Source: Chlorobiota bacterium
GTDB taxonomy: Bacteria; Bacteroidota; Ignavibacteria; Kapaibacteriales; UBA961
Length of the DNA: 64,000 bases
Direction of reading: 5' to 3'
Assembly (NCBI GenBank): GCA_014191195.1
Contig: BJGZ01000004.1
Coordinates: 124,001 to 188,000 of the forward strand
Shown piece after piece: positions 22,357 to 34,748 of the stretch. Numbering within the stretch: the stretch's first letter is position 1; each line of letters starts with the position of its first letter. A program made the translations under genes and the position numbers. The notes below the pieces were generated by a model. It was not told where the DNA came from. It ran no database searches and worked only from the letters and a program-made list of their open reading frames with translations.

Positions 22357-25300
22357 TTATCTACCGCCTGATACAGATACTTTGATATCCATACCAACTT
22401 GATATTTACTAAATCCAGGGGAGGCTGCGCCTTGATTTATTGTTGTTTCATATCTCATAAAAAAGCGAGCAGTTACTCTATTGCTGATGCCATACCGTGC
22501 CGAAGGTTCAATAATAATTTGAGTATTACCATCTAATTTTTGGCCTTCAGCAGATGTTAAATTTAACACATCATATGTAGAACGTAAAGTTCTTTTGTAT
22601 GTGGCATTTAAGGCAAATTCCATATCATTCTGTAAATCCAAACCCAATAACTTAAGCTTAAATCCACGTCTATTATAATTAGCTTGAATAGTAGCATCAG
22701 TTACAGATTCACCTTGAATTACCGATGAAGTAGGTTGTAATGTATAGTTTTGTTTGGTTGTAAATCGGAAAGATCCAGTTAATAAACCATTTAATTTCGT
22801 CTCGTCAAAAGTCATTTGAATACCAAACAATGGTTCAAATCCAGATTGTATTTGCTGAGATCCAGGAATAGTACCATTATCTGTTCTGGTTGAACTTTCT
22901 TGATATGTAGATTTATAAGCATGTTCAAAAGTAACGCGTTTTGCCAAACCAGAGAATAGAGGAAGTTTTTCAACACCATCCCATCGTAAAGTCCAATTCA
23001 TGGATGGTAATATTCTTAATATTTCTCTTGGTAAAAACCCCATAAAGTTGGTTCCAAGCCCATCCTCAAAAGAATTAGAAAGAGCGTCTCTTAAAGCTTG
23101 ATTTTGCCTTAATGTATCGGTAGGATATAAAGCAGAAATTATTGGCTTTTGATTATTATATAATTCAATAACATGTTCTATGGAATTATTAAGCGGAGCA
23201 AAGATTAAAAATTTAGGTAAAGATAAGTATGTACGATTATAGGTTGAACTCATTACGATATTTGTAAAACGAGAATTTCCTTCAGAATCGGTACTGTCTA
23301 ATTGATTACGATTAAAACCAAATGATGATTTCCAATTAATATCAATGGTGGCACCTGCCCACAATGGACGATTTGTACGGAATTCTAATTCTGATTTTTG
23401 AAAGAAATTATCCGGTAAAATTGAGTTCTTTGGTCTTTTTCCATCATATGTTGTAAAACGTATAAATGGAAAGCTAGAGGATGGCAATACAGAAAATCCA
23501 CCATGTGGTTGGGATACCAATCCTAATTGATATGCTGCACTTGGCCCCATAGAATTATCTTCATTCATTCCAATGACTGGACGCCAAAAATTAGTCATTC
23601 CTGTTTCGCCCAATACTCCTTGATTGATCGAAGAATTTTCTTGTTTAACATTCAAAGTAATCGTTTCATAATCCAAAAAGATTGTCTTGAAAACTCTTCC
23701 AATAGATTTAAATATAGAATAAGTAGAATCATTTGTTTTTGAACCCGCCGAGATACCCCACCATTTATCAGTTAATCCTTTTAATCGCAGATTACTTGTA
23801 AATCGTATTGTATTTTGAAAAGAGGATTGTTTTACAGCATCAGATACTAAAGTGTCTCTTTGTAAAGGATTTCTCCATGTATACGTAGTTGAAAATGTAC
23901 CAGTATTATCCATATAATTATTAAGTCCACCGATATCAGGAAATTTAGGCTTAATATTTACTGTTACTGTCTGAGAATGATTCGTGTTCTGTCCAAAATC
24001 AATAATTCTATCACCATTCATTACAACTCTTCTTACTAAATCACTTCCTTCTCTTTGTCTACCTGCATCATCTAATTCTAAAGGAACAAGAGTTCCACCT
24101 GTAGTGAATGAATAATCTATAACTGGATTTAAGAGCCCATTCTCAGATATTCTCCATGTAAATTGAGCTTGCCTAATTGCGGCAAAATCTCTGATAACTG
24201 GACTTGGAAAACTTAGATATCTACTTTTTTCAGTTACTCGAGATCTATTAAACTGAACCGAGGTAGAGAAAGTAGTAGGTAAAAAGAAGATTTTCCAATC
24301 TTTATAAATACCTAAAATTGGTATATCACCAATCCATGTTAATGGTTTTACAGAAACTGAACTTGGTAATTGAACGCTATAATCAGCTTTCATTCGCCAA
24401 TTCCATTTGAAGCGCTCCTCTACAACAGGAGATCTTTCATAGGTTTGTGAATAATCATAGCTAAGATTAATTTTATTGATTGTTTCTTTGATCAACCAAT
24501 GATTAACCGGTATTCCAAATTTAAATCCAGATAATGCCCAACTATCTTGTACCCTAATAGTTTGAGATCTTCTTCTTACCGAATCAGCAACCCGTGCAGA
24601 TTCAATTTCATCTCCATTGGTTCTTACTAATTCACTTTCATAAGCAGCTTTTGTAGCAGCATCAATTTTCACATCACTTTGTGCTGCAAATTGAGGATTT
24701 TCAACAAGTTCACCATGTGTATAAGAAATAGGAATTTTCATTTCTTTAAGTTCTTTTGGTAATAATTTATCCAAAGAACCTTGCATTTGAACATTCCAAT
24801 TTAATGTCTGATTTCTATTACCAAAGCGTTCTTCTAATCTATGAAAATTTGGATTTGACTGATTATACGTGGCATTTACAGTACCTAAATCTGCTAATTT
24901 TAATTCTGCAGATCCAATTCCTGCCCAATCTGTTGAACTTTCTGGTTCGGTAAGTCTTAATTCGTCTACCCACATATATGTAGAGAGATCCTCGGGGAAG
25001 CTTCCTGTTGTTGGATTTGCTATACCATATCCAACAAACTGTATTCTTGTTAAAATCGGATTTCCTTTGATGATATACTGAGTTTCTACAGGGATAGCAA
25101 ATCCTGGATCAAAAACTGACGATGTATCAATAAATCGTTCGGATGGATCTACAGGAACTTTATTTTGAGCAGCAACTTGCGATCTTTTTTCTTTTACTGA
25201 TGTTAATGTTGGTAAATCAATTTCTATATCGCGCCATCCTTCTAATAGGGGACGTCTTATTTCATAATAATTAGCAGAATCTAAACCAAAGCGGACAAAT

Positions 25301-28300
25301 GCTTGTGCTTTTGTACTTGCCCCATAGGGAATTAAATTGGGCATAGATCCATCGCCATGTAAAAAGAACTTTAATTTTTTATAATAAAACACATCCAAGT
25401 TTCGCATGATACGAACTGCCATTCTTTCTTGTCCGGCTGGTAGATTTTTTACGCCTATCGATAAAGACTGTTCATTTAGGCGAACATCCTGCATTGGGTC
25501 TGGATTATTAATTTGCCTAGGGCGCTGAACTCCAGGTGGTAAGGAATATTTATCTGGTAATCCGCTATTTTCTTCAATACCTACATATTGAACACTTAAG
25601 ATGCTATCATTGGCATTTACATTTGGTTGATATCCATTATTTCTTATCCATTGTCCACCTGTAAATTTCCATTCAGCTATATTTAATACAATGGGTGCAC
25701 CCTTAAACCATACTCTAACATATTGAATATTAGAAAATGTTGGATTGCCTACTGTTCTGGTTGGACGTCTTAATGGAATCCTGAAAAAATACCAGCCGGC
25801 CCCTTGCTTTCCTTCACCTACAATCTGAGGATTTCTTCTTGCATCTAAATCGAGATTCACTTTATAGCTAAAGTAACTATTATCTAAAGCTATCGTTTGG
25901 CCATTATTATTATTAAGAATTTCTCTATCAGGAAATTGTCCAGATTCTGCAAGAGTTGCATTATTTTCAAAATTATTATAAAACCTAAACATCGTATCGG
26001 TTTGAAACTGCCTGTCAATCTGGAAATTAAAGTAATAATTATCTCTAGCAGGATCTTTTTCTTGATTGAGTGGATATGGATATGAAATGCCAGGTATAGA
26101 AGAATTCTTTTCATCTTGATCACTAATGGCATCATATCCTACATCTTCACCTAAATCTATAATATTATTTGGTATAGGGCTTTCTTTGGTAATGCCATCT
26201 TCAGTATTTAATGTAGAATTTCCAATCACATCTTCACTGATTTGTCCTAAATCTATCCACATCTCGGAATTAGAAAATAAGACATCGAATTTTACTACCA
26301 TTTCTAGATAATCAATATTCTCTGTTTCAAAATTGGTATTAAAAGTAGAAAATAATCGCTGAATTCCCCCCCAAGTTCTACTCTGATTCCTTGATAAATA
26401 GTCTAAATACTTAAGTGAATCTTGTTCAAAAACAGGATTTAATCTATCTACGAAATTTGGATTCCGATTATAAATACCGCGATATTCAGGGAAAAACCTA
26501 AGTTTTAAATCATTGATCGTTGTTAATCTGCCTCTGGTATCTCGATTTGGATATACATCTGTAATTGGAGTTTGCCCCAAGAAATATTGATACCAATAAC
26601 TTTGTCCTCTGAACCAAGATTCTGCTTTCGAAAGTGGATCATCATATAAAGTAGAATCTTCTGGTATTGATATATGAGCCCATTGCTGAGGAGTTAAACC
26701 AAGAGAAATACTTCTCTGAGCACCTTCAAAATCATCTACATATGCAACTGCAGCGCCATTATCAGAGGGTATATCAGAAATCCTTTTATTTGGTGTAGGT
26801 AGCATTGCTGCAACTTCGCCACGAAGTGTTAATGTGGATTTTTCTTTAGTATCATAAAAAGGCATCGCATCTAATGCTTTTGTTAAAAAAGGTAAAGTTA
26901 GATTTAGATTTCCATCTAAGCCAATCATCGTATTTGATACGGGCTCTTCATTTACTCTTACTCTATCAAAAATCAAAGCTTGATTATAATGCATAAATGT
27001 TAAACCAAGATTTCCACTTCCTGATCTTCTTTTGAACACTTCCATATCTGCTCTTAATCCAAGCATTGTTTTTGTTGCAAGATTGAATAAGTCATTTTGT
27101 TCATATTCAATGCTCAGATTAGCATTTGGTAATGATGCCCTTGGATTTGTTAATGTAACTTGTCCAGTAAAATATTCTACATAATAGTCTTGATTTTCTT
27201 TAAGTGGTGAGCCATCTAATGTAACTTTTACGCTTCCTGGTGATAAATTGAATGCTCCTAAAGAAATCTTACCTCCACCAGTATTCATGGTCCCTGTGGC
27301 TTCTCCACTGATTAAAAATCTATCTTTATCATTGGATCTTTTAGCAATTTCCACTATTTCATTATATACTTGGGGATACCGATATCGATTGGCTATTTGT
27401 GGTGAACCCTGCGCAGAAAAATAATGAACTAATCCACTATCAAAAGGCATCCTTTCAGGAAATATGATTTCGCCTCTTACTGGATTAAAAAATGGTGATC
27501 CTTGTTGTTGATATTGAACTGGCAATTGTGAAGTTGGTGTTGTAACTCCTGTTCCACCAGTATTTCCAGTATTCATTTGATTCTGTTGCTGCTGTTGCTG
27601 AGGACTCCCTAAATCGAACATTCCATCTGGTTTTGCTGTTCCATCAGAGTTATTTACTCTATCCACACCAAGTATTGTAACAACTTTATCACTAGAGCCT
27701 TCAAGTACATCAGAAGAGTCATTATTTGCCCTCATATACCATATATTTAATTTCAAATCTGCCAGATTTACATTTGTTTGGCCAATACTAAATATATTTC
27801 TCATTTGGCGTTTCCATATAGTAGAAAAACCAGGTTGCATATTTGGACGATATACCAATTTTAACAATAAAGTATCTTTAGGCTGTAATGTATTAGAAAT
27901 AGTTCCAAAATCAACATCATCTGATGCATTGCTGGTAAGGCCTTCTATTCTGTATGCAACGCCATAACTTCTATCTGTTTTAAGCCCCGTAATTGTTAAT
28001 CTTCCCAAATTCTCATCGTATTGATAGAATTTAGAATCTAATTTTAAATATTTTCCTCTTTCTGTAAATCCCGCTATAGGTGGAATACTTTTTAATGAAG
28101 CTGGATAATAAGAGGGGATTGCACCTACACGATTAATAGCACTTAAGGTATCAATTAAAATTCCTTCTGCTGCCTGCGATGCTTGCTGAACATCAACTGT
28201 TGATTCGTATACTTCTAGCAGTTTTATTCGATTATATCGTGCTTGCGCCGTATTTGGTAATAAGGGTATCTGAGCCTTATAATATGTATCCCAGATTCCA

Positions 28301-29388
28301 AAATATGCGGTATCTAAAAAGAAATTCTTTTTATCATAATCATATGCATTTAGTCTGAAAGGTTGTCTTAATGTACCACCACCCGATACATTTACTCGCT
28401 TTGATTCGCCGCGTCTTTGTGACACAACAGTTTTAAGATATACAGGTCCAAATTGAAAATCTGTCCTTATCCCAAATAAGCTTTGGCTTCCTCCAATTAG
28501 AGTAGATGGGGTTGGAAATTGAATATTTCCTACTTCTACTCTTTTGAAAATATCGTCATCATTACCAGAAAATCCAACATTAAATCTATTATTTAAGTCA
28601 AATTGCTGCCTGGTATTCCAATCTACACCTAGCTTTAACTTATCACCAATTTTTCCGGTTACATTTAAATTGATGTCTTGTGTAAAAAATGGTCCAGACT
28701 GCGTTTGCCCAAATGGAGAAGCTGTCCCCATTTTTTGTGAATCCCATTGCCATCCTGCCCTCACATTTACATCGCCTGCTACATTGATACTAATTTCAGG
28801 CTTTCCAAATATGCTGGAAATTGGATTGGGTGGAACCGGAATACTTAATCCTGTAGCTTGACTTAAAATTCCAGCTATATCGGATGTCGACATAGCTTTT
28901 TTTAAATCATATGATTTAACCATTGAATCCCATATTCTGCCTCTCTCTTTTTCTTTTCTAAGAGCTAAATATGTATCTAATTGTATGCTGTTTCCTGCTG
29001 ACATCGTTATATCATTATAAGATTCTGTCTTCCTTACATCCGTAAGTGTAGAATCTATTGTCACATTGATATCATAACCAGGGGGGATTTTTAAGGAATT
29101 GAATCTGTCTTTACCAAAATTTCCTCTGAAATTATTTTTGGGGACAAAAATTCCAGATAATGGTAATGGTTGTTTGGCTAATGAGTCTTCGGCAACTTGA
29201 TATTCAAGATAAGAAAAGGAGGGCCTTAAAAAATAGCTATTGCTTATTAAAAGTGCAGCCCTTATTGAAGTAAGAACTAAATCACTGCTTTCTATTTCTG
29301 CACTATGCATAGCATAGGAATTCATGCTCAACAGATATATTGAACCTAGAATTATAGAGAAAAAACATTGACCTATCGTTCGCTTCAT
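22357..29388 (-). CDS. sprA: T9SS outer-membrane translocon protein SprA (Sov)
   Basis: This product of about 2343 residues matches SprA in size; SprA is the giant beta-barrel pore of type IX secretion. It starts with a signal peptide (MKRTIGQCFFSIILGSIYLLSMNSYA). The conserved AYVDDFEGAQRSISLG block is present, with many amphipathic strands throughout. An N-terminal region (FSIFGKPEISINVAGDVNVRAGW... through KLGVDWNTRQQFD) is typical of the family. The tail (MRYETTINQGAASPGFSKYQVGMDIKVSVSGG) looks like closing strands. A Gln-rich stretch (QQQQQQNQ) is at about residue 600. The ATG at 29388 is chosen because the signal peptide begins there, with GAAAGA just before it. It pairs functionally with the five T9SS cargos listed here. 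Confidence 0.95.
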   Translation of the reverse strand: MKRTIGQCFFSIILGSIYLLSMNSYAMHSAEIESSDLVLTSIRAALLISNSYFLRPSFSYLEYQVAEDSLAKQPLPLSGIFVPKNNFRGNFGKDRFNSLKIPPGYDINVTIDSTLTDVRKTESYNDITMSAGNSIQLDTYLALRKEKERGRIWDSMVKSYDLKKAMSTSDIAGILSQATGLSIPVPPNPISSIFGKPEISINVAGDVNVRAGWQWDSQKMGTASPFGQTQSGPFFTQDINLNVTGKIGDKLKLGVDWNTRQQFDLNNRFNVGFSGNDDDIFKRVEVGNIQFPTPSTLIGGSQSLFGIRTDFQFGPVYLKTVVSQRRGESKRVNVSGGGTLRQPFRLNAYDYDKKNFFLDTAYFGIWDTYYKAQIPLLPNTAQARYNRIKLLEVYESTVDVQQASQAAEGILIDTLSAINRVGAIPSYYPASLKSIPPIAGFTERGKYLKLDSKFYQYDENLGRLTITGLKTDRSYGVAYRIEGLTSNASDDVDFGTISNTLQPKDTLLLKLVYRPNMQPGFSTIWKRQMRNIFSIGQTNVNLADLKLNIWYMRANNDSSDVLEGSSDKVVTILGVDRVNNSDGTAKPDGMFDLGSPQQQQQQNQMNTGNTGGTGVTTPTSQLPVQYQQQGSPFFNPVRGEIIFPERMPFDSGLVHYFSAQGSPQIANRYRYPQVYNEIVEIAKRSNDKDRFLISGEATGTMNTGGGKISLGAFNLSPGSVKVTLDGSPLKENQDYYVEYFTGQVTLTNPRASLPNANLSIEYEQNDLFNLATKTMLGLRADMEVFKRRSGSGNLGLTFMHYNQALIFDRVRVNEEPVSNTMIGLDGNLNLTLPFLTKALDAMPFYDTKEKSTLTLRGEVAAMLPTPNKRISDIPSDNGAAVAYVDDFEGAQRSISLGLTPQQWAHISIPEDSTLYDDPLSKAESWFRGQSYWYQYFLGQTPITDVYPNRDTRGRLTTINDLKLRFFPEYRGIYNRNPNFVDRLNPVFEQDSLKYLDYLSRNQSRTWGGIQRLFSTFNTNFETENIDYLEMVVKFDVLFSNSEMWIDLGQISEDVIGNSTLNTEDGITKESPIPNNIIDLGEDVGYDAISDQDEKNSSIPGISYPYPLNQEKDPARDNYYFNFQIDRQFQTDTMFRFYNNFENNATLAESGQFPDREILNNNNGQTIALDNSYFSYKVNLDLDARRNPQIVGEGKQGAGWYFFRIPLRRPTRTVGNPTFSNIQYVRVWFKGAPIVLNIAEWKFTGGQWIRNNGYQPNVNANDSILSVQYVGIEENSGLPDKYSLPPGVQRPRQINNPDPMQDVRLNEQSLSIGVKNLPAGQERMAVRIMRNLDVFYYKKLKFFLHGDGSMPNLIPYGASTKAQAFVRFGLDSANYYEIRRPLLEGWRDIEIDLPTLTSVKEKRSQVAAQNKVPVDPSERFIDTSSVFDPGFAIPVETQYIIKGNPILTRIQFVGYGIANPTTGSFPEDLSTYMWVDELRLTEPESSTDWAGIGSAELKLADLGTVNATYNQSNPNFHRLEERFGNRNQTLNWNVQMQGSLDKLLPKELKEMKIPISYTHGELVENPQFAAQSDVKIDAATKAAYESELVRTNGDEIESARVADSVRRRSQTIRVQDSWALSGFKFGIPVNHWLIKETINKINLSYDYSQTYERSPVVEERFKWNWRMKADYSVQLPSSVSVKPLTWIGDIPILGIYKDWKIFFLPTTFSTSVQFNRSRVTEKSRYLSFPSPVIRDFAAIRQAQFTWRISENGLLNPVIDYSFTTGGTLVPLELDDAGRQREGSDLVRRVVMNGDRIIDFGQNTNHSQTVTVNIKPKFPDIGGLNNYMDNTGTFSTTYTWRNPLQRDTLVSDAVKQSSFQNTIRFTSNLRLKGLTDKWWGISAGSKTNDSTYSIFKSIGRVFKTIFLDYETITLNVKQENSSINQGVLGETGMTNFWRPVIGMNEDNSMGPSAAYQLGLVSQPHGGFSVLPSSSFPFIRFTTYDGKRPKNSILPDNFFQKSELEFRTNRPLWAGATIDINWKSSFGFNRNQLDSTDSEGNSRFTNIVMSSTYNRTYLSLPKFLIFAPLNNSIEHVIELYNNQKPIISALYPTDTLRQNQALRDALSNSFEDGLGTNFMGFLPREILRILPSMNWTLRWDGVEKLPLFSGLAKRVTFEHAYKSTYQESSTRTDNGTIPGSQQIQSGFEPLFGIQMTFDETKLNGLLTGSFRFTTKQNYTLQPTSSVIQGESVTDATIQANYNRRGFKLKLLGLDLQNDMEFALNATYKRTLRSTYDVLNLTSAEGQKLDGNTQIIIEPSARYGISNRVTARFFMRYETTINQGAASPGFSKYQVGMDIKVSVSGGR

Positions 29389-29621
29389 TCTTTCAACAAT
29401 AAAAATGCAACCAAAACAGATTTGTACTGCTATTTGAATTGAATAATTAGAAAATCTATTCAATTGCTATTAACTTTATACAACTCAAAAACACAATAAA
29501 AAATTGTACCAATGGCGCAAATATTGACTCAATTTGTTGAAATAATGATATATAATTACTGCAAATTACTTTGTGAGAAGCAACCCAGCAAATATTTTAC
29601 AAAAAAACGATAGTTTTTTAC

Positions 29622-31979
29622 TTATCTATTAATTATTAATGGTTTACAGCTTGTATAAATTCCTGCCTTAAAGATGCAAAAATAAATTCCTGGAGACAAA
29701 AACTCTGTAGAAAACGGAAAAGAAATTTGCTCATTTGAAATCATTTGTCCATTATATAATTCTAATAATTCACCGCCTTGTACCGAACAAATAATAATCT
29801 TACTTGGCATATCATATGGTGAAGAACAATGGATAAGCGCTTGTTCCGAATGATTCATTGCCTGGTAAACATCAAATGTAAATCCTCCCTTAGCATTATG
29901 TACACCTTTATAGCCTTCTCCACATACTGAATCTAATGTAAAAGAGCCACTTATGGGTGGATTAACTTTGAAAAAATTAGGGCAATCTCCTCTTCCAAAC
30001 TGAGTTGGGTTCTTTATTTGATTTATATCATGCTTAATAATGATATCAACTGAACCTGGCGCGGCAATATATGTATCATACACTAAATTCGCCAAAATAG
30101 GATTGTCTATAAATGAATTACTTTTAGATTTTATATCTAATTCTATCTGTATACTAGATCCTAATGTTTTTTTTGTTATCGATATATTGCTATTTGCTGT
30201 TGCAGTTCCTTCGGTATATACTGTATCAAATCGAAAAGCATAGGTACTATCAAATTGTATAGATGTTTTGAAAGATGATGAATATATTAAAGACTTTGAG
30301 CCTGAATCAATATATATGGGAATAAGTACTTTTTTGCTAGGTGCGCTTTTTACTTTGCCAATTGAAAGTGAAATTGAATCTGGTACAATACCATTTCCGC
30401 TAAGAAAAACTGTATCTCTTTGTGGTAATTTAGCATTAGCATCCCTTACAGAATTTGATATAAAGATGAGAGTATCTTTGCTTATGCCTGAAGTTTTGGA
30501 TTTTGGTAGAAAACTAAGTAAATAACTTTGACTTTTGTTAGGTTCAATTGTTAATTTACTTTTTGGAGAGATATCATAATCTCCTTTACCAACAGGCGAC
30601 AAAAACTCTGGAGTAGATACTTCCAAAAGTAAATTCCCAGTATTCGTAATCTTAATTGTTCGAATTTTTGAAATACTATCACATACATTATTCTGTTCTG
30701 ACGGAACCACAATATCTTCGAATTCTATTGCAACTTGATCTTTTATTAAAACTGGGGCTTGTCCTATTCCTTTAATGTCGAATCTAATAATACTATCTGT
30801 TGGGCTATTCCTCACTCTAGATCTAATATCTGTATGTAATTCTAGTGTACAATTTATATCTCCAGATTCTTGAGGTTTAACAAATAAAGTGATTTTTGCA
30901 GTTTTAGAATTAGCGGGAATAATGATGATTTTTCCAGTATCTAGAGAGCTATACGATGGACCTTTTGGGGCAAATTCTTTCAGAATTAACTTTGCATGAA
31001 TAGGAATATTACCTGTATTTTCAAACACTACTTCAACTTCACTCAATTTTCCTACATTAATACTATCCACATTGATTCCGCGGAAATTAGCATCAACAGT
31101 AATAGGAATACCTGATTTTCCTTGTGACAAACGAGAAATGAGAGCGTCATGTTTTACCCCAAATCCTTTGATAATAACGCTATTACTATCAGCAACATTA
31201 TCAATATTTGGTGAATAATATGTTGTCACTTTAGCAGAGTCCCAGCCGAGCTTTTGTGGTTGATAGTCTATATCTACAGAATAAAGCCCATTTGGATTTA
31301 CTATCTTATTTGGATTTTGACTAATTGAGATAGAACTGCTATCAATATATGTATCTATTGAAGTTTTTGAGACAGTTAAATCAGCTTTTGACACATTTCT
31401 AAGATTCCATTGTGTTGGAGGATTATATTGTCCTACTAATACAGAATCAAAATTGATAAGAGTATCCCTTTTTGCTAAAAAATCTTTGGTTTTCCAACCT
31501 CTAACATAAAAATATCTGGTATATGATGTAGTATCAGTAGTATCAATGTTAGACAAGGTTAGTTGAATCTTAGCGGTTTTAATTCCTAATCTATCATCAC
31601 CAGATGTATCAATGACTGGTTTGAATCTTATTGGAAATGCTTTGGGTTTCGAATTTTCCGTAATTGTAAAAGGAAAAATGATATTATCTGGGTAAAACTC
31701 TCTAAACTGTTCTGGATTGGCTTTGTCAGATTCTAACACAAAATTTGGGGCAAATCCATCTTTTATCCAAATATCACCTTTGCCCAAATTTTCCATATAA
31801 AAATTGAGGATTTTTGGTGAATCTTTAAAAAACAGAATATCATAATCTAAAGTATCTGCATTTTTATTAGTAGAGTCAATCCAAATAGCAGCCTTTACTT
31901 GAGCATAACACACAGAATGATGTACGGATAAACAACTTATCAGTAAACATAAAATCCCAAAAAACATAACCCTTTTCAT
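29622..31979 (-). CDS. T9SS cargo protein with repeated Ig-like (ASH/choice-of-anchor type) domains
   Basis: This is a 785-residue secreted protein with a signal peptide (1-26). It has at least three beta-sandwich segments of the ASH/choice-of-anchor D kind, visible as recurring patterns such as VVFENTGNIPIHAKL and IKITNTGNLLLEVS. The C-terminal domain ends ELLELYNGQMISNEQ...LSPGIYFCIFKAG, a T9SS sorting domain. No catalytic motif is seen; a surface structural or adhesive role is a guess. Its ATG shares one base with the stop of the upstream ridA-like gene (TAATG), so it is translationally coupled to an enzyme gene, an unusual pairing. Confidence 0.85.
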   Translation of the reverse strand: MKRVMFFGILCLLISCLSVHHSVCYAQVKAAIWIDSTNKNADTLDYDILFFKDSPKILNFYMENLGKGDIWIKDGFAPNFVLESDKANPEQFREFYPDNIIFPFTITENSKPKAFPIRFKPVIDTSGDDRLGIKTAKIQLTLSNIDTTDTTSYTRYFYVRGWKTKDFLAKRDTLINFDSVLVGQYNPPTQWNLRNVSKADLTVSKTSIDTYIDSSSISISQNPNKIVNPNGLYSVDIDYQPQKLGWDSAKVTTYYSPNIDNVADSNSVIIKGFGVKHDALISRLSQGKSGIPITVDANFRGINVDSINVGKLSEVEVVFENTGNIPIHAKLILKEFAPKGPSYSSLDTGKIIIIPANSKTAKITLFVKPQESGDINCTLELHTDIRSRVRNSPTDSIIRFDIKGIGQAPVLIKDQVAIEFEDIVVPSEQNNVCDSISKIRTIKITNTGNLLLEVSTPEFLSPVGKGDYDISPKSKLTIEPNKSQSYLLSFLPKSKTSGISKDTLIFISNSVRDANAKLPQRDTVFLSGNGIVPDSISLSIGKVKSAPSKKVLIPIYIDSGSKSLIYSSSFKTSIQFDSTYAFRFDTVYTEGTATANSNISITKKTLGSSIQIELDIKSKSNSFIDNPILANLVYDTYIAAPGSVDIIIKHDINQIKNPTQFGRGDCPNFFKVNPPISGSFTLDSVCGEGYKGVHNAKGGFTFDVYQAMNHSEQALIHCSSPYDMPSKIIICSVQGGELLELYNGQMISNEQISFPFSTEFLSPGIYFCIFKAGIYTSCKPLIINR

Positions 31980-32604: not shown

Positions 32605-33564
32605 ATGAAAAGAATTGGATTATTATGTAGCGGAGCAGATGCACCCGGAATGAATGCATTTATTAGATCTGTTATTAGGTCTGCAGAAGCAAAAAAGATA
32701 GAAATTATCGGTATTTCTCAGGGTTTTAAAGGTTTAGTAGAGGAACAGTTTAAACTTGTAACAAGAATGGACACGGCAAATATTGTTGGAACAGGTGGCA
32801 CAATTCTTAAAACTGGAGTTTATGAACCATTTATGGATCAAGCAAATCGTACTATTGCAGCATTAAACCTAAAAAAAGCAGGAATTGATGGCTTGATAGG
32901 ATGTGGTGGAATAGGCTTATTAAAAGTATTACATGCATTAGCCAAGGAACATAATATCTCGGTTGTTGGTGCCCCTGCAACAATTGATAATGATATTTAT
33001 GGAACAGATTATACAATTGGTTATGATACTGCATTAAATACTGCTGCAGATGCGATTGATAGAATTAGAGATACAGCAGAATCAGAAGGTAATGTATACA
33101 TCATTGAAGTTATGGGAAGTGAGGCGGGCTATATAGCCATTAATGTTGGAATAGGTTGTGGCGCCGAATATATTGCTATCCCAGAAACAATTACGAATAT
33201 TCCTGATTTACACAGACGAATAACCACCAGACAAAAAAATAAAAGATATATTATTGTTATTGGTGAAGGCGATGAAGTAGGTGGTGGTATAGATTTAGCA
33301 AATATTTTAAAAGATTCCTATAATATCGATAGTAGAGTGGCAGTACTAGGAGCATTGCAAAAAGGGGGGCGTCCTTCAATTGCCGATCGTGTCCTTGCTA
33401 GCCGACTAGGATCTGCTGCCATCGATGCAATGCTTAGTGGTAATGTAAATGCTATGGTTGGGGTTGTTAATGGAACAATTCAACATACACCATTACCAAT
33501 GACATTTGACAGAAAAAAAATCTTACCAGATTATCTCGTTTCTTTATCTGATTTATTAGCTTAA
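32605..33564 (+). CDS. pfkA: PfkA-fold phosphofructokinase family protein with divergent active site
   Basis: The 319-residue length and overall sequence are clearly PfkA family, including SGADAPGMNAFIRSVIR, TIDNDIYGTDYTIGYDTA (about residues 126-143), IEVMG and the C-terminal RPSIADRVLASRLGS. However, many catalytic positions differ from E. coli PfkA: Gly11 is Ala, Arg72 is Val, the Mg-ATP Asp103 is Ile (GGDGS is GGIGL), Arg162 is Asn, Arg171 is Ser, His249 is Ala and Arg252 is Lys. The catalytic-base Asp in TIDND remains. It may be a low-activity, regulatory or differently specific paralog. I chose the ATG at 32605 because the protein then begins MKRIGLL like all homologs. It leads a cluster with DUF1844 and nadK. 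Confidence 0.88.
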   Translation: MKRIGLLCSGADAPGMNAFIRSVIRSAEAKKIEIIGISQGFKGLVEEQFKLVTRMDTANIVGTGGTILKTGVYEPFMDQANRTIAALNLKKAGIDGLIGCGGIGLLKVLHALAKEHNISVVGAPATIDNDIYGTDYTIGYDTALNTAADAIDRIRDTAESEGNVYIIEVMGSEAGYIAINVGIGCGAEYIAIPETITNIPDLHRRITTRQKNKRYIIVIGEGDEVGGGIDLANILKDSYNIDSRVAVLGALQKGGRPSIADRVLASRLGSAAIDAMLSGNVNAMVGVVNGTIQHTPLPMTFDRKKILPDYLVSLSDLLA

Positions 33565-33579
33565 TTATTTGATATTATT

Positions 33580-33867
33580 ATGAAAATTGACTTTAGTGGA
33601 ATTATCCAAATGTTTCAGTTTGAGGGATTTACTGCATTAGGTAAAATTGCTCATCCAGTATCTGGAAAAACTGAAAAAAATACAGAACACGCATCATTTA
33701 TCATTGATTTATTAGCTGTTTTGCAACAGAAAACTCAAGGAAATCTTACAGATTCCGAGCATAAATTACTAGATACTACTCTCAGAGATTTACGTTTGAA
33801 TTTTATTGCAGATATGAATACTTCTCCAGCTTCTCAGCAACCAGATTCTGATGGCCTTCAAGCATGA
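33580..33867 (+). CDS. DUF1844 domain protein
   Basis: This small helical protein of 95 residues matches DUF1844. An N-terminal phenylalanine-rich helix is followed by ALGKI, then ASFIIDLLAVLQQKTQGNLTDSEHKLLDTTLRDLR (about 38-72), the family core. The function is unknown. Its last codons overlap the nadK start (ATGA), so the two are coupled; it lies 15 bases after the PfkA-like gene. Confidence 0.85.
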   Translation: MKIDFSGIIQMFQFEGFTALGKIAHPVSGKTEKNTEHASFIIDLLAVLQQKTQGNLTDSEHKLLDTTLRDLRLNFIADMNTSPASQQPDSDGLQA

Positions 33868-34748
33868 AACATATAGGAATATATGTTAATTCAGAAAAAG
33901 ATTATGCCATTACAATTGCAGGTAAAGCCATAGCTTATTTACTGGAATTAGGTGCATTATGTTGCGCAGAACAGGAAATTATCAATGGATTACCACTGCA
34001 CATACAATCTGATATTACAATATTACCTGCATCTGAATTTGACAGATTTGCAGACATTGTAATTGCATTTGGTGGTGATGGAACAATGCTAACTGCAGCC
34101 AGACAATTTATTGGAAGCGATATGCCTTTAATGGGTGTAAATGTTGGAAGATTAGGCTTCTTAGCAGAATTTAATGTCCAAGAATTAGAACATGCATTAA
34201 AAGATCTTTTATCAGGTGGCTATAGAGTAGTAGATAGATCTATGCTGGAAGCCGAAATTCATGGTAAACAGTATCATGCTTTTAATGAATTCGTATTTGA
34301 AAAAAAAGATTCTTCTCGATTAATCACTATGCATATTGCTAATCATCAACATCTAATAGCTTCTTATAGAGCCGATGGAGTAATAATTGCAACTCCTACT
34401 GGTTCAACGGCATATTCTCTTTCTTGTGGAGGGCCAATAATAACTCCTTCGGCCGAAGTATTATGTATTACTCCGATTTCTGCACATACTCTTAATATGC
34501 GACCACTTATCATCCCGGATACTCTTGAACTGACAGTTACACTAGAAACCATGCGGGGTGAAGCAAGAATGGTAGCAGATGGACAAATTGAAATTCCATT
34601 ATCTGATAAAGATATAGTGATATTAAGACGGTCTAAGCATATGGTAAAATTAGTAAAGCATGCTGATAGTACTTTTTTCGATTTATTAAGAAATAAACTC
34701 TTATGGTCTATGGATGCATCTATAATTGACACTCCACAACTTTTTTAA
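33864..34748 (+). CDS. nadK: NAD kinase
   Basis: NadK phosphorylates NAD to NADP. The 294-residue protein keeps all signature blocks: FGGDGTML (about residues 71-78), NVGRLGFLAEF (about 95-105), the AFNEFV block (about 134-139), and DGVIIATPTGSTAYSLSCGGPII (about 170-192). It overlaps DUF1844 upstream by 4 bases. Downstream, it overlaps the HAD gene by 23 bases if the first start of that gene is used. Confidence 0.96.
   Translation: MKHIGIYVNSEKDYAITIAGKAIAYLLELGALCCAEQEIINGLPLHIQSDITILPASEFDRFADIVIAFGGDGTMLTAARQFIGSDMPLMGVNVGRLGFLAEFNVQELEHALKDLLSGGYRVVDRSMLEAEIHGKQYHAFNEFVFEKKDSSRLITMHIANHQHLIASYRADGVIIATPTGSTAYSLSCGGPIITPSAEVLCITPISAHTLNMRPLIIPDTLELTVTLETMRGEARMVADGQIEIPLSDKDIVILRRSKHMVKLVKHADSTFFDLLRNKLLWSMDASIIDTPQLF

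What the first reader, a model, noticed from the sequence alone, without database searches (positions are those of the whole stretch)
32605..33564. PfkA-family protein lacking key ATP- and fructose-6-phosphate-binding residues
Numbering matches E. coli PfkA exactly up to residue 103 and with an offset of one afterwards. Gly11 is Ala, Arg72 is Val, Asp103 (Mg-ATP) is Ile, Arg162 is Asn, Arg171 is Ser, His249 is Ala and Arg252 is Lys, yet the TIDND catalytic loop and the fold are intact. Such wide loss at both substrate sites suggests a new substrate or phosphoryl donor, or a regulatory role. It leads a conserved-looking block with DUF1844 and NAD kinase.
Basis: partly seen in the sequence, partly recalled or inferred. 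Interest (0 to 1): 0.65.

Follow-up and report, generated by a model that had tools for sequence, protein, structure and literature searches.

The report
Bacterial phosphofructokinase turned probable pseudoenzyme
A small group of uncultured Kapabacteria keeps, under strong selection, a copy of the glycolytic enzyme phosphofructokinase whose catalytic pocket has decayed step by step while its regulatory pocket stayed intact, so it is probably a free-standing sensor or scaffold rather than an enzyme.

Summary
Among 110 orthologs, loss of G11, R72, D103 (other than to E/N), H249 (other than to Y) or R252 occurs only in this family of Candidatus Kapaibacterium-like bacteria, as a graded series: canonical in the rest of the order; G11T/R72Q/R171S in one sister genus; plus D103A/G104T/G108V/R162K in another; complete in this genus (7/7 genomes); gene deleted in place in a further genome. 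It is the vertical ortholog, in an order-wide pfkA-(DUF1844)-NADK operon. It is not a dying gene: dN/dS is 0.008-0.11, while ATP-site residues drift (103 is I, T or P; 104 G or W) and the main effector-site residues never change. The genome carries two other PFKs with intact catalytic residues. A new phosphoryl donor is disfavoured (no GGDD/K124 PPi signature, pocket not conserved). Best reading: a PFK-inactive pseudoenzyme kept for a non-catalytic role, probably binding ADP/PEP-type effectors, comparable to the dead C-terminal halves of eukaryotic PFK-1. Catalytic death and ligand binding are inferred, not measured.

The parts
32605..33564 (+). degenerate PfkA (319 aa), PF00365; full-length PFK fold
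32635..32637 (+). G11A (ATP phosphate loop); T in the six congeners
32818..32820 (+). R72V (transition-state arginine); K in five congeners; Q or H in sister genera
32911..32913 (+). D103I (Mg-ATP aspartate); T or P in congeners
32926..32928 (+). G108V (adenine-packing glycine); Y in five congeners
   Evidence: role of this glycine from PMC12203962
32977..32979 (+). G124A
32980..32994 (+). TIDND loop retained (D127 base, D129); T125 becomes I in five congeners
33091..33093 (+). R162N (F6P phosphate ligand, given to the neighbouring subunit)
33118..33120 (+). R171S
33352..33354 (+). H249A (F6P)
33361..33363 (+). R252K (F6P/transition state)
32665..32679 (+). R21 and R25 of the allosteric effector site, retained in all genus members
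33067..33069 (+). R154 of the effector site, retained
33160..33168 (+). G185 to E187 of the effector site, retained
33580..33867 (+). DUF1844 protein (PF08899), same operon
33864..34748 (+). NAD kinase, same operon (overlaps DUF1844 by 4 bases)

Best explanation
The protein is a PfkA pseudoenzyme. It is the vertically inherited pfkA of the order, which in this family lost its Mg-ATP site and then its F6P site after the lineage came to rely on other phosphofructokinases. It folds as a normal PFK protomer and keeps the effector pocket at the subunit interface. It most likely works by binding a phosphorylated effector (ADP or PEP class) there and changing its assembly or its contact with a partner, without transferring phosphate. 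Shown: residue losses, graded decay, orthology and synteny, purifying selection, fold prediction, other PFKs in the genome. Inferred: no PFK activity (about 0.85), effector binding (about 0.5), regulation of a partner, perhaps a catalytic PFK or the operon's NAD kinase (low, no direct evidence).
For: Seven key substrate residues replaced, five of them never lost in this way outside the family among 110 orthologs. Graded series on a supported tree (family clade 98/97, genus 100/100): G009/G011 have T11 Q72 S171 only; G012 has A11 H72 D102 A103 T104 V108 K162 S171; the genus has all. In-place loss in G007: RidA and NAD kinase adjoin with no pfkA. dN/dS 0.041 to the nearest relative and 0.008-0.11 across the genus. 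Identity G000 to G002 is 76% for this protein, 70% for the C10 PFK and 69% for NAD kinase, so it is constrained like real enzymes. Active-site columns change more than others: 6/13 conserved substrate columns against 9/61 of the rest, Fisher p=0.019; 0/5 effector columns changed. Of 11 differences from L005, 5 line the substrate pocket (P=0.0014). Substrate-site positions hold 10-27% of the differences between the two genus lineages and between WIN and L005, against mean 2.0%, maximum 4.7%, in 4746 canonical pairs. Two other PFKs with D127, R162, R171, R243, R252 and GGDG/GGNG are in the genome, with PGI, a DeoC/FbaB-family aldolase candidate and FBPase.
Against: The catalytic base D127, D129, E222 and, in this genome, T125 and R243 persist; low or altered activity is possible. 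F6P-side replacements are nearly fixed, as a re-tuned ligand site would be. Effector-site residues may be kept for tetramer packing rather than ligand binding. The column tests rest on few independent lineages. No expression, binding or partner data exist.
Confidence: 0.62

Rival explanations
1. Neofunctionalised kinase or phosphotransferase: the base D127 still works, with another sugar phosphate or donor bound by the remodelled pocket.
For: D127, D129 and E222 retained in all seven genomes; F6P-side replacements nearly constant (A124, N162, S171, A/P249, K252).
Against: Donor side is not conserved within the genus (A/T11, V/K72, I/T/P103, G/W104, V/G/Y108), T125 is I in five of seven and R243 is I or T in five; no GGDD/K124 PPi signature.
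Confidence: 0.15
2. Still a phosphofructokinase, only impaired or with an unusual pocket.
For: Scores above the NF002872 'ATP-dependent 6-phosphofructokinase' cutoff (323.5 vs 253); fold intact; D127 and R243 present; R162 or R171 is absent in other PfkAs too.
Against: Below the TIGR02482 equivalog cutoff (313.8 vs 371); simultaneous loss of the Mg aspartate, R72, H249 and R252 is seen nowhere else among the orthologs; congeners carry P103-W104 and I125.
Confidence: 0.1
3. A redundant gene on its way out, with no present function.
For: Deleted in place in G007, absent in G008 and G010; family genomes have other PFK genes.
Against: dN/dS far below 1 after active-site loss, no stops or frameshifts in seven genomes, conserved as well as the neighbouring NAD kinase.
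Confidence: 0.13

Closest known systems
Bacterial ATP-dependent PfkA (E. coli 1pfk, Geobacillus 3u39/4pfk)
   Same: Length, fold (TM 0.94-0.96), effector-site residues, structural glycines, IDND loop
   Different: Mg-ATP and F6P ligands G11, R72, D103, G108, R162, R171, H249, R252 replaced
C-terminal regulatory halves of eukaryotic PFK-1 (e.g. human PFKM/PFKL)
   Same: PFK fold with ATP pocket lost and sugar pocket altered (PMC12203962); phmmer alignment shows parallel changes: G11 to A, D103 to F, G124 to A, R171 to G, R252 to Q
   Different: Those are fused to a catalytic half and have also lost the TIDND aspartates; this one is a separate bacterial protein that keeps them
Plant PFP alpha (regulatory) subunit (from general knowledge)
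   Same: A separate PFK-family polypeptide regarded as regulatory
   Different: PPi-PFK family with a dedicated beta partner; here no partner is known and paralogs exist without it
Group III / mixed PFK (TIGR02483), the C10 paralog in this genome
   Same: Superfamily; co-resident
   Different: Catalytic residues intact, GGDG with K124; only 39% identical

Membership tests
Phosphofructokinase superfamily (PF00365) | PFK domain and two-Rossmann fold | tested here: met
   295 bits vs cutoff 30.9; AF2 pLDDT 92.4, TM 0.96 to 3u39
ATP-dependent 6-phosphofructokinase PfkA (TIGR02482 equivalog) | Score above the curated equivalog cutoff | tested here: not met
   313.8 vs 371.35; orthology and synteny nevertheless place it in the pfkA lineage
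ATP-dependent 6-phosphofructokinase PfkA | Mg-ATP site: G11, R72, D103, G104, G108 | tested here: not met
   A, V, I, G, V
ATP-dependent 6-phosphofructokinase PfkA | F6P site: T125, D127, R162, M169, R171, E222, R243, H249, R252 | tested here: not met
   T, D, N, M, S, E, R, A, K: four of nine lost
ATP-dependent 6-phosphofructokinase PfkA | Allosteric site: R21, R25, R54, R154, G185, E187, K213 | tested here: met
   R, R, R, R, G, E, R (R213 is usual in the order)
PPi-dependent PFK | GGDD motif and PKTIDXD | tested here: not met
   GGIG and PATIDND; signature from PMC12203962
Pseudoenzyme | Catalytic residues lost while the gene is under purifying selection | tested here: met
Pseudoenzyme | No catalytic activity, with a demonstrated non-catalytic function | not testable with these tools
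   needs purified protein and genetics

The most novel reading that the evidence does not exclude
A free-standing bacterial PFK pseudoenzyme that senses ADP/PEP through the ancestral effector site and controls another enzyme (a co-resident catalytic PFK or the operon's NAD kinase), evolved by in-situ decay of pfkA, with living intermediates and an empty-locus genome preserved in one family.
Probability: 0.3. Interest if true: 0.72.

Novelty: new variant of a known kind. Interest (0 to 1): 0.52.

Why it matters
Loss of catalysis with gain of regulation in PFK is known from fused eukaryotic halves, where it happened long ago. The 2025 superfamily review (PMC12203962) describes that case and, searched for the terms 'pseudo', 'inactive' and 'regulatory subunit', holds no bacterial counterpart. 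Here intact, partly decayed, fully decayed and deleted states exist side by side in one operon context, so the order of residue loss and the point at which catalysis dies can be tested with a handful of proteins. It also warns against automatic annotation: this gene passes the NF002872 'ATP-dependent 6-phosphofructokinase' cutoff.

Tried and rejected
PPi-donor switch: no GGDD or K124. Gene decay without function: rejected as main account by dN/dS and open frames. Assembly or sequencing error: rejected, seven genomes agree in kind. Horizontal gain or a divergent paralog: rejected, it sits in the order-wide pfkA-DUF1844-NADK operon and groups with the family's own orthologs. Synteny as a clue to special function: rejected, shared with canonical PfkAs. 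Hetero-tetramer that completes a catalytic partner's F6P site: unlikely, because N162 (and R243I/T in congeners) cannot supply the phosphate ligands. A first alignment mis-read minus-strand loci; it was corrected and only forward rows are used. Literature searches found no bacterial PFK pseudoenzyme (open-access papers only).

Full report
Observation. The ORF at 32605-33564 (+) encodes a 319-aa protein. It is a PFK by Pfam (295 bits, cutoff 30.9) and by NCBIfam subfamily NF002872 (323.5 vs 253), but falls under the TIGR02482 ATP-PFK equivalog cutoff (313.8 vs 371.35). D127, D129, E222, T125, M169, G170 and R243 are kept. AlphaFold2 gives mean pLDDT 92.4 and pTM 0.90; the model matches Geobacillus PFK 3u39 at TM 0.96, rmsd 1.5 A, and E. 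coli 1pfk at TM 0.94.

Host and distribution. A 97%-identical copy lies in 'Candidatus Kapaibacterium sp.'. In the whole-genome sets the gene is present in all seven genus genomes, in three of the seven other family genomes, and as canonical PfkA in many order members. It is the vertical ortholog: pfkA-(DUF1844)-NADK order is shared across families of the order, with RidA upstream within this family, and the tree places all family copies together (98/97) and the genus copies together (100/100).

Graded decay. Order-level orthologs are canonical. In sister genus g4 (G009, G011) G11T, R72Q and R171S have occurred. In G012 (g2) G11A, R72H, G102D, D103A, G104T, G108V, G124A, R162K and R171S. In the genus all of G11, R72, D103, R162, R171, H249 and R252 are gone; five of seven genomes add G104W, G108Y, T125I and R243I/T. 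In G007 RidA and NAD kinase are neighbours with no pfkA between them, and G008 lacks it too. Among 110 orthologs no sequence outside this family has lost G11, R72, H249 (other than to Y), R252, or D103 beyond E/N; R162 alone is replaced in seven further sequences, most of them labelled Bacteroidales or relatives, and in G019.

Selection. Nei-Gojobori dN/dS is 0.041 for the window copy against G004 (73 synonymous, 12 nonsynonymous differences) and 0.008-0.11 for other genus pairs; dS above about 1.5 is near saturation, so the upper values are rough. Identity between G000 and G002 is 76% here, 69% for NAD kinase and 70% for the catalytic-looking C10 PFK. Yet the changes fall in the substrate pocket: 5 of 11 differences between the window copy and G004 line it (P=0.0014 with my 29-position set; 3 of 11, P=0.025, with a stricter 20-position set). 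In 4746 canonical ortholog pairs on average 2.0% (maximum 4.7%) of differences lie at those 20 positions, against 9.6-27% in the pairs WIN-L005, WIN-L006, WIN-L008 and L005-L006. Of 74 columns conserved in at least 95% of 98 canonical orthologs, 6 of 13 substrate-site and 9 of 61 other columns are changed in the genus (p=0.019) and 0 of 5 effector columns. The site lists follow the E. coli literature numbering from memory. These tests rest on few independent lineages and are indicative, not conclusive.

What replaced it. The genome has two other PFK-domain genes. The C10 gene is of the mixed group (TIGR02483 411 bits, slightly under its 430.55 cutoff), with GGDG, K124, R162, R171, R243, H249 and R252. 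The C1 gene has GGNG, S125 and Y249 and keeps the arginines. PGI, FBPase I and a DeoC/FbaB-family aldolase candidate are present, so the F6P/FBP node exists. In the order, genomes carrying the C10 type of family f1, f7, f8 or G036 have either no PfkA or a decayed one (G019 only mildly: V124, Q162), while families with PfkA alone (f2) keep it canonical; G082, with a more distant mixed-type gene, keeps a canonical PfkA. This suggests replacement followed by decay, though it is confounded by shared ancestry, and two incomplete genus genomes (G004, G005) show no C10 gene.

Mechanism. R162 (and, from general knowledge, R243) serves the neighbouring subunit's F6P site, and the effector pocket lies at the other interface (PMC12203962). 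With N162 this subunit cannot complete a partner's F6P site, but the residues of the effector interface are those of active PfkAs. I therefore favour a protein that binds an ADP/PEP-class effector at the old allosteric site and acts by assembly or contact, not by phosphoryl transfer. The human PFK C-terminal half offers a precedent: catalysis and ATP pocket lost, sugar pocket turned into an effector site (PMC12203962), with parallel replacements visible in the alignment (G11 to A, D103 to F, G124 to A, R171 to G, R252 to Q). The partner is unknown; the C10/C1 PFKs and NAD kinase are candidates only.

Novelty. The open-access literature searched holds no bacterial PFK pseudoenzyme and the 2025 review has no such entry. 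Absence there is weak evidence. I rate it a new variant of a known kind (a PFK pseudoenzyme, previously known as fused halves or plant subunits).

Noticed in passing
L135 (G000:C1:286328-287173) and relatives L185, L186, L125: A second divergent PFK clade (GGNG, S125, Y249, A108), below the NF002872 cutoff, is widespread in the order and is the only PFK-domain gene found in families f6, f4-g7 and f3-g24, so it may be an unrecognised main phosphofructokinase.
   Followed up: partly
L200 (G012:C34:10516-11370): The NAD kinase next to the half-decayed PfkA of G012 shows an in-frame TAA in the search result; could be an assembly error or a real break in a normally essential gene.
   Followed up: no
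G000 whole genome: No class II FBP aldolase (PF01116) found in a 100%-complete genome although the control genomes ring; a DeoC/FbaB-type class I aldolase candidate is present.
   Followed up: partly
window 22357-29463 (-): Very large SprA-like (type IX secretion/gliding) protein, identified by eye only; 83% identical to congeners over the stretch compared, near a fast-evolving 785-aa protein at 29622-31979 (22-26% between congeners).
   Followed up: no
L016 (G019): A single-genome family (f7) with both other PFK types shows a mild, possibly independent onset of PfkA pocket change (D103E, G124V, R162Q).
   Followed up: partly
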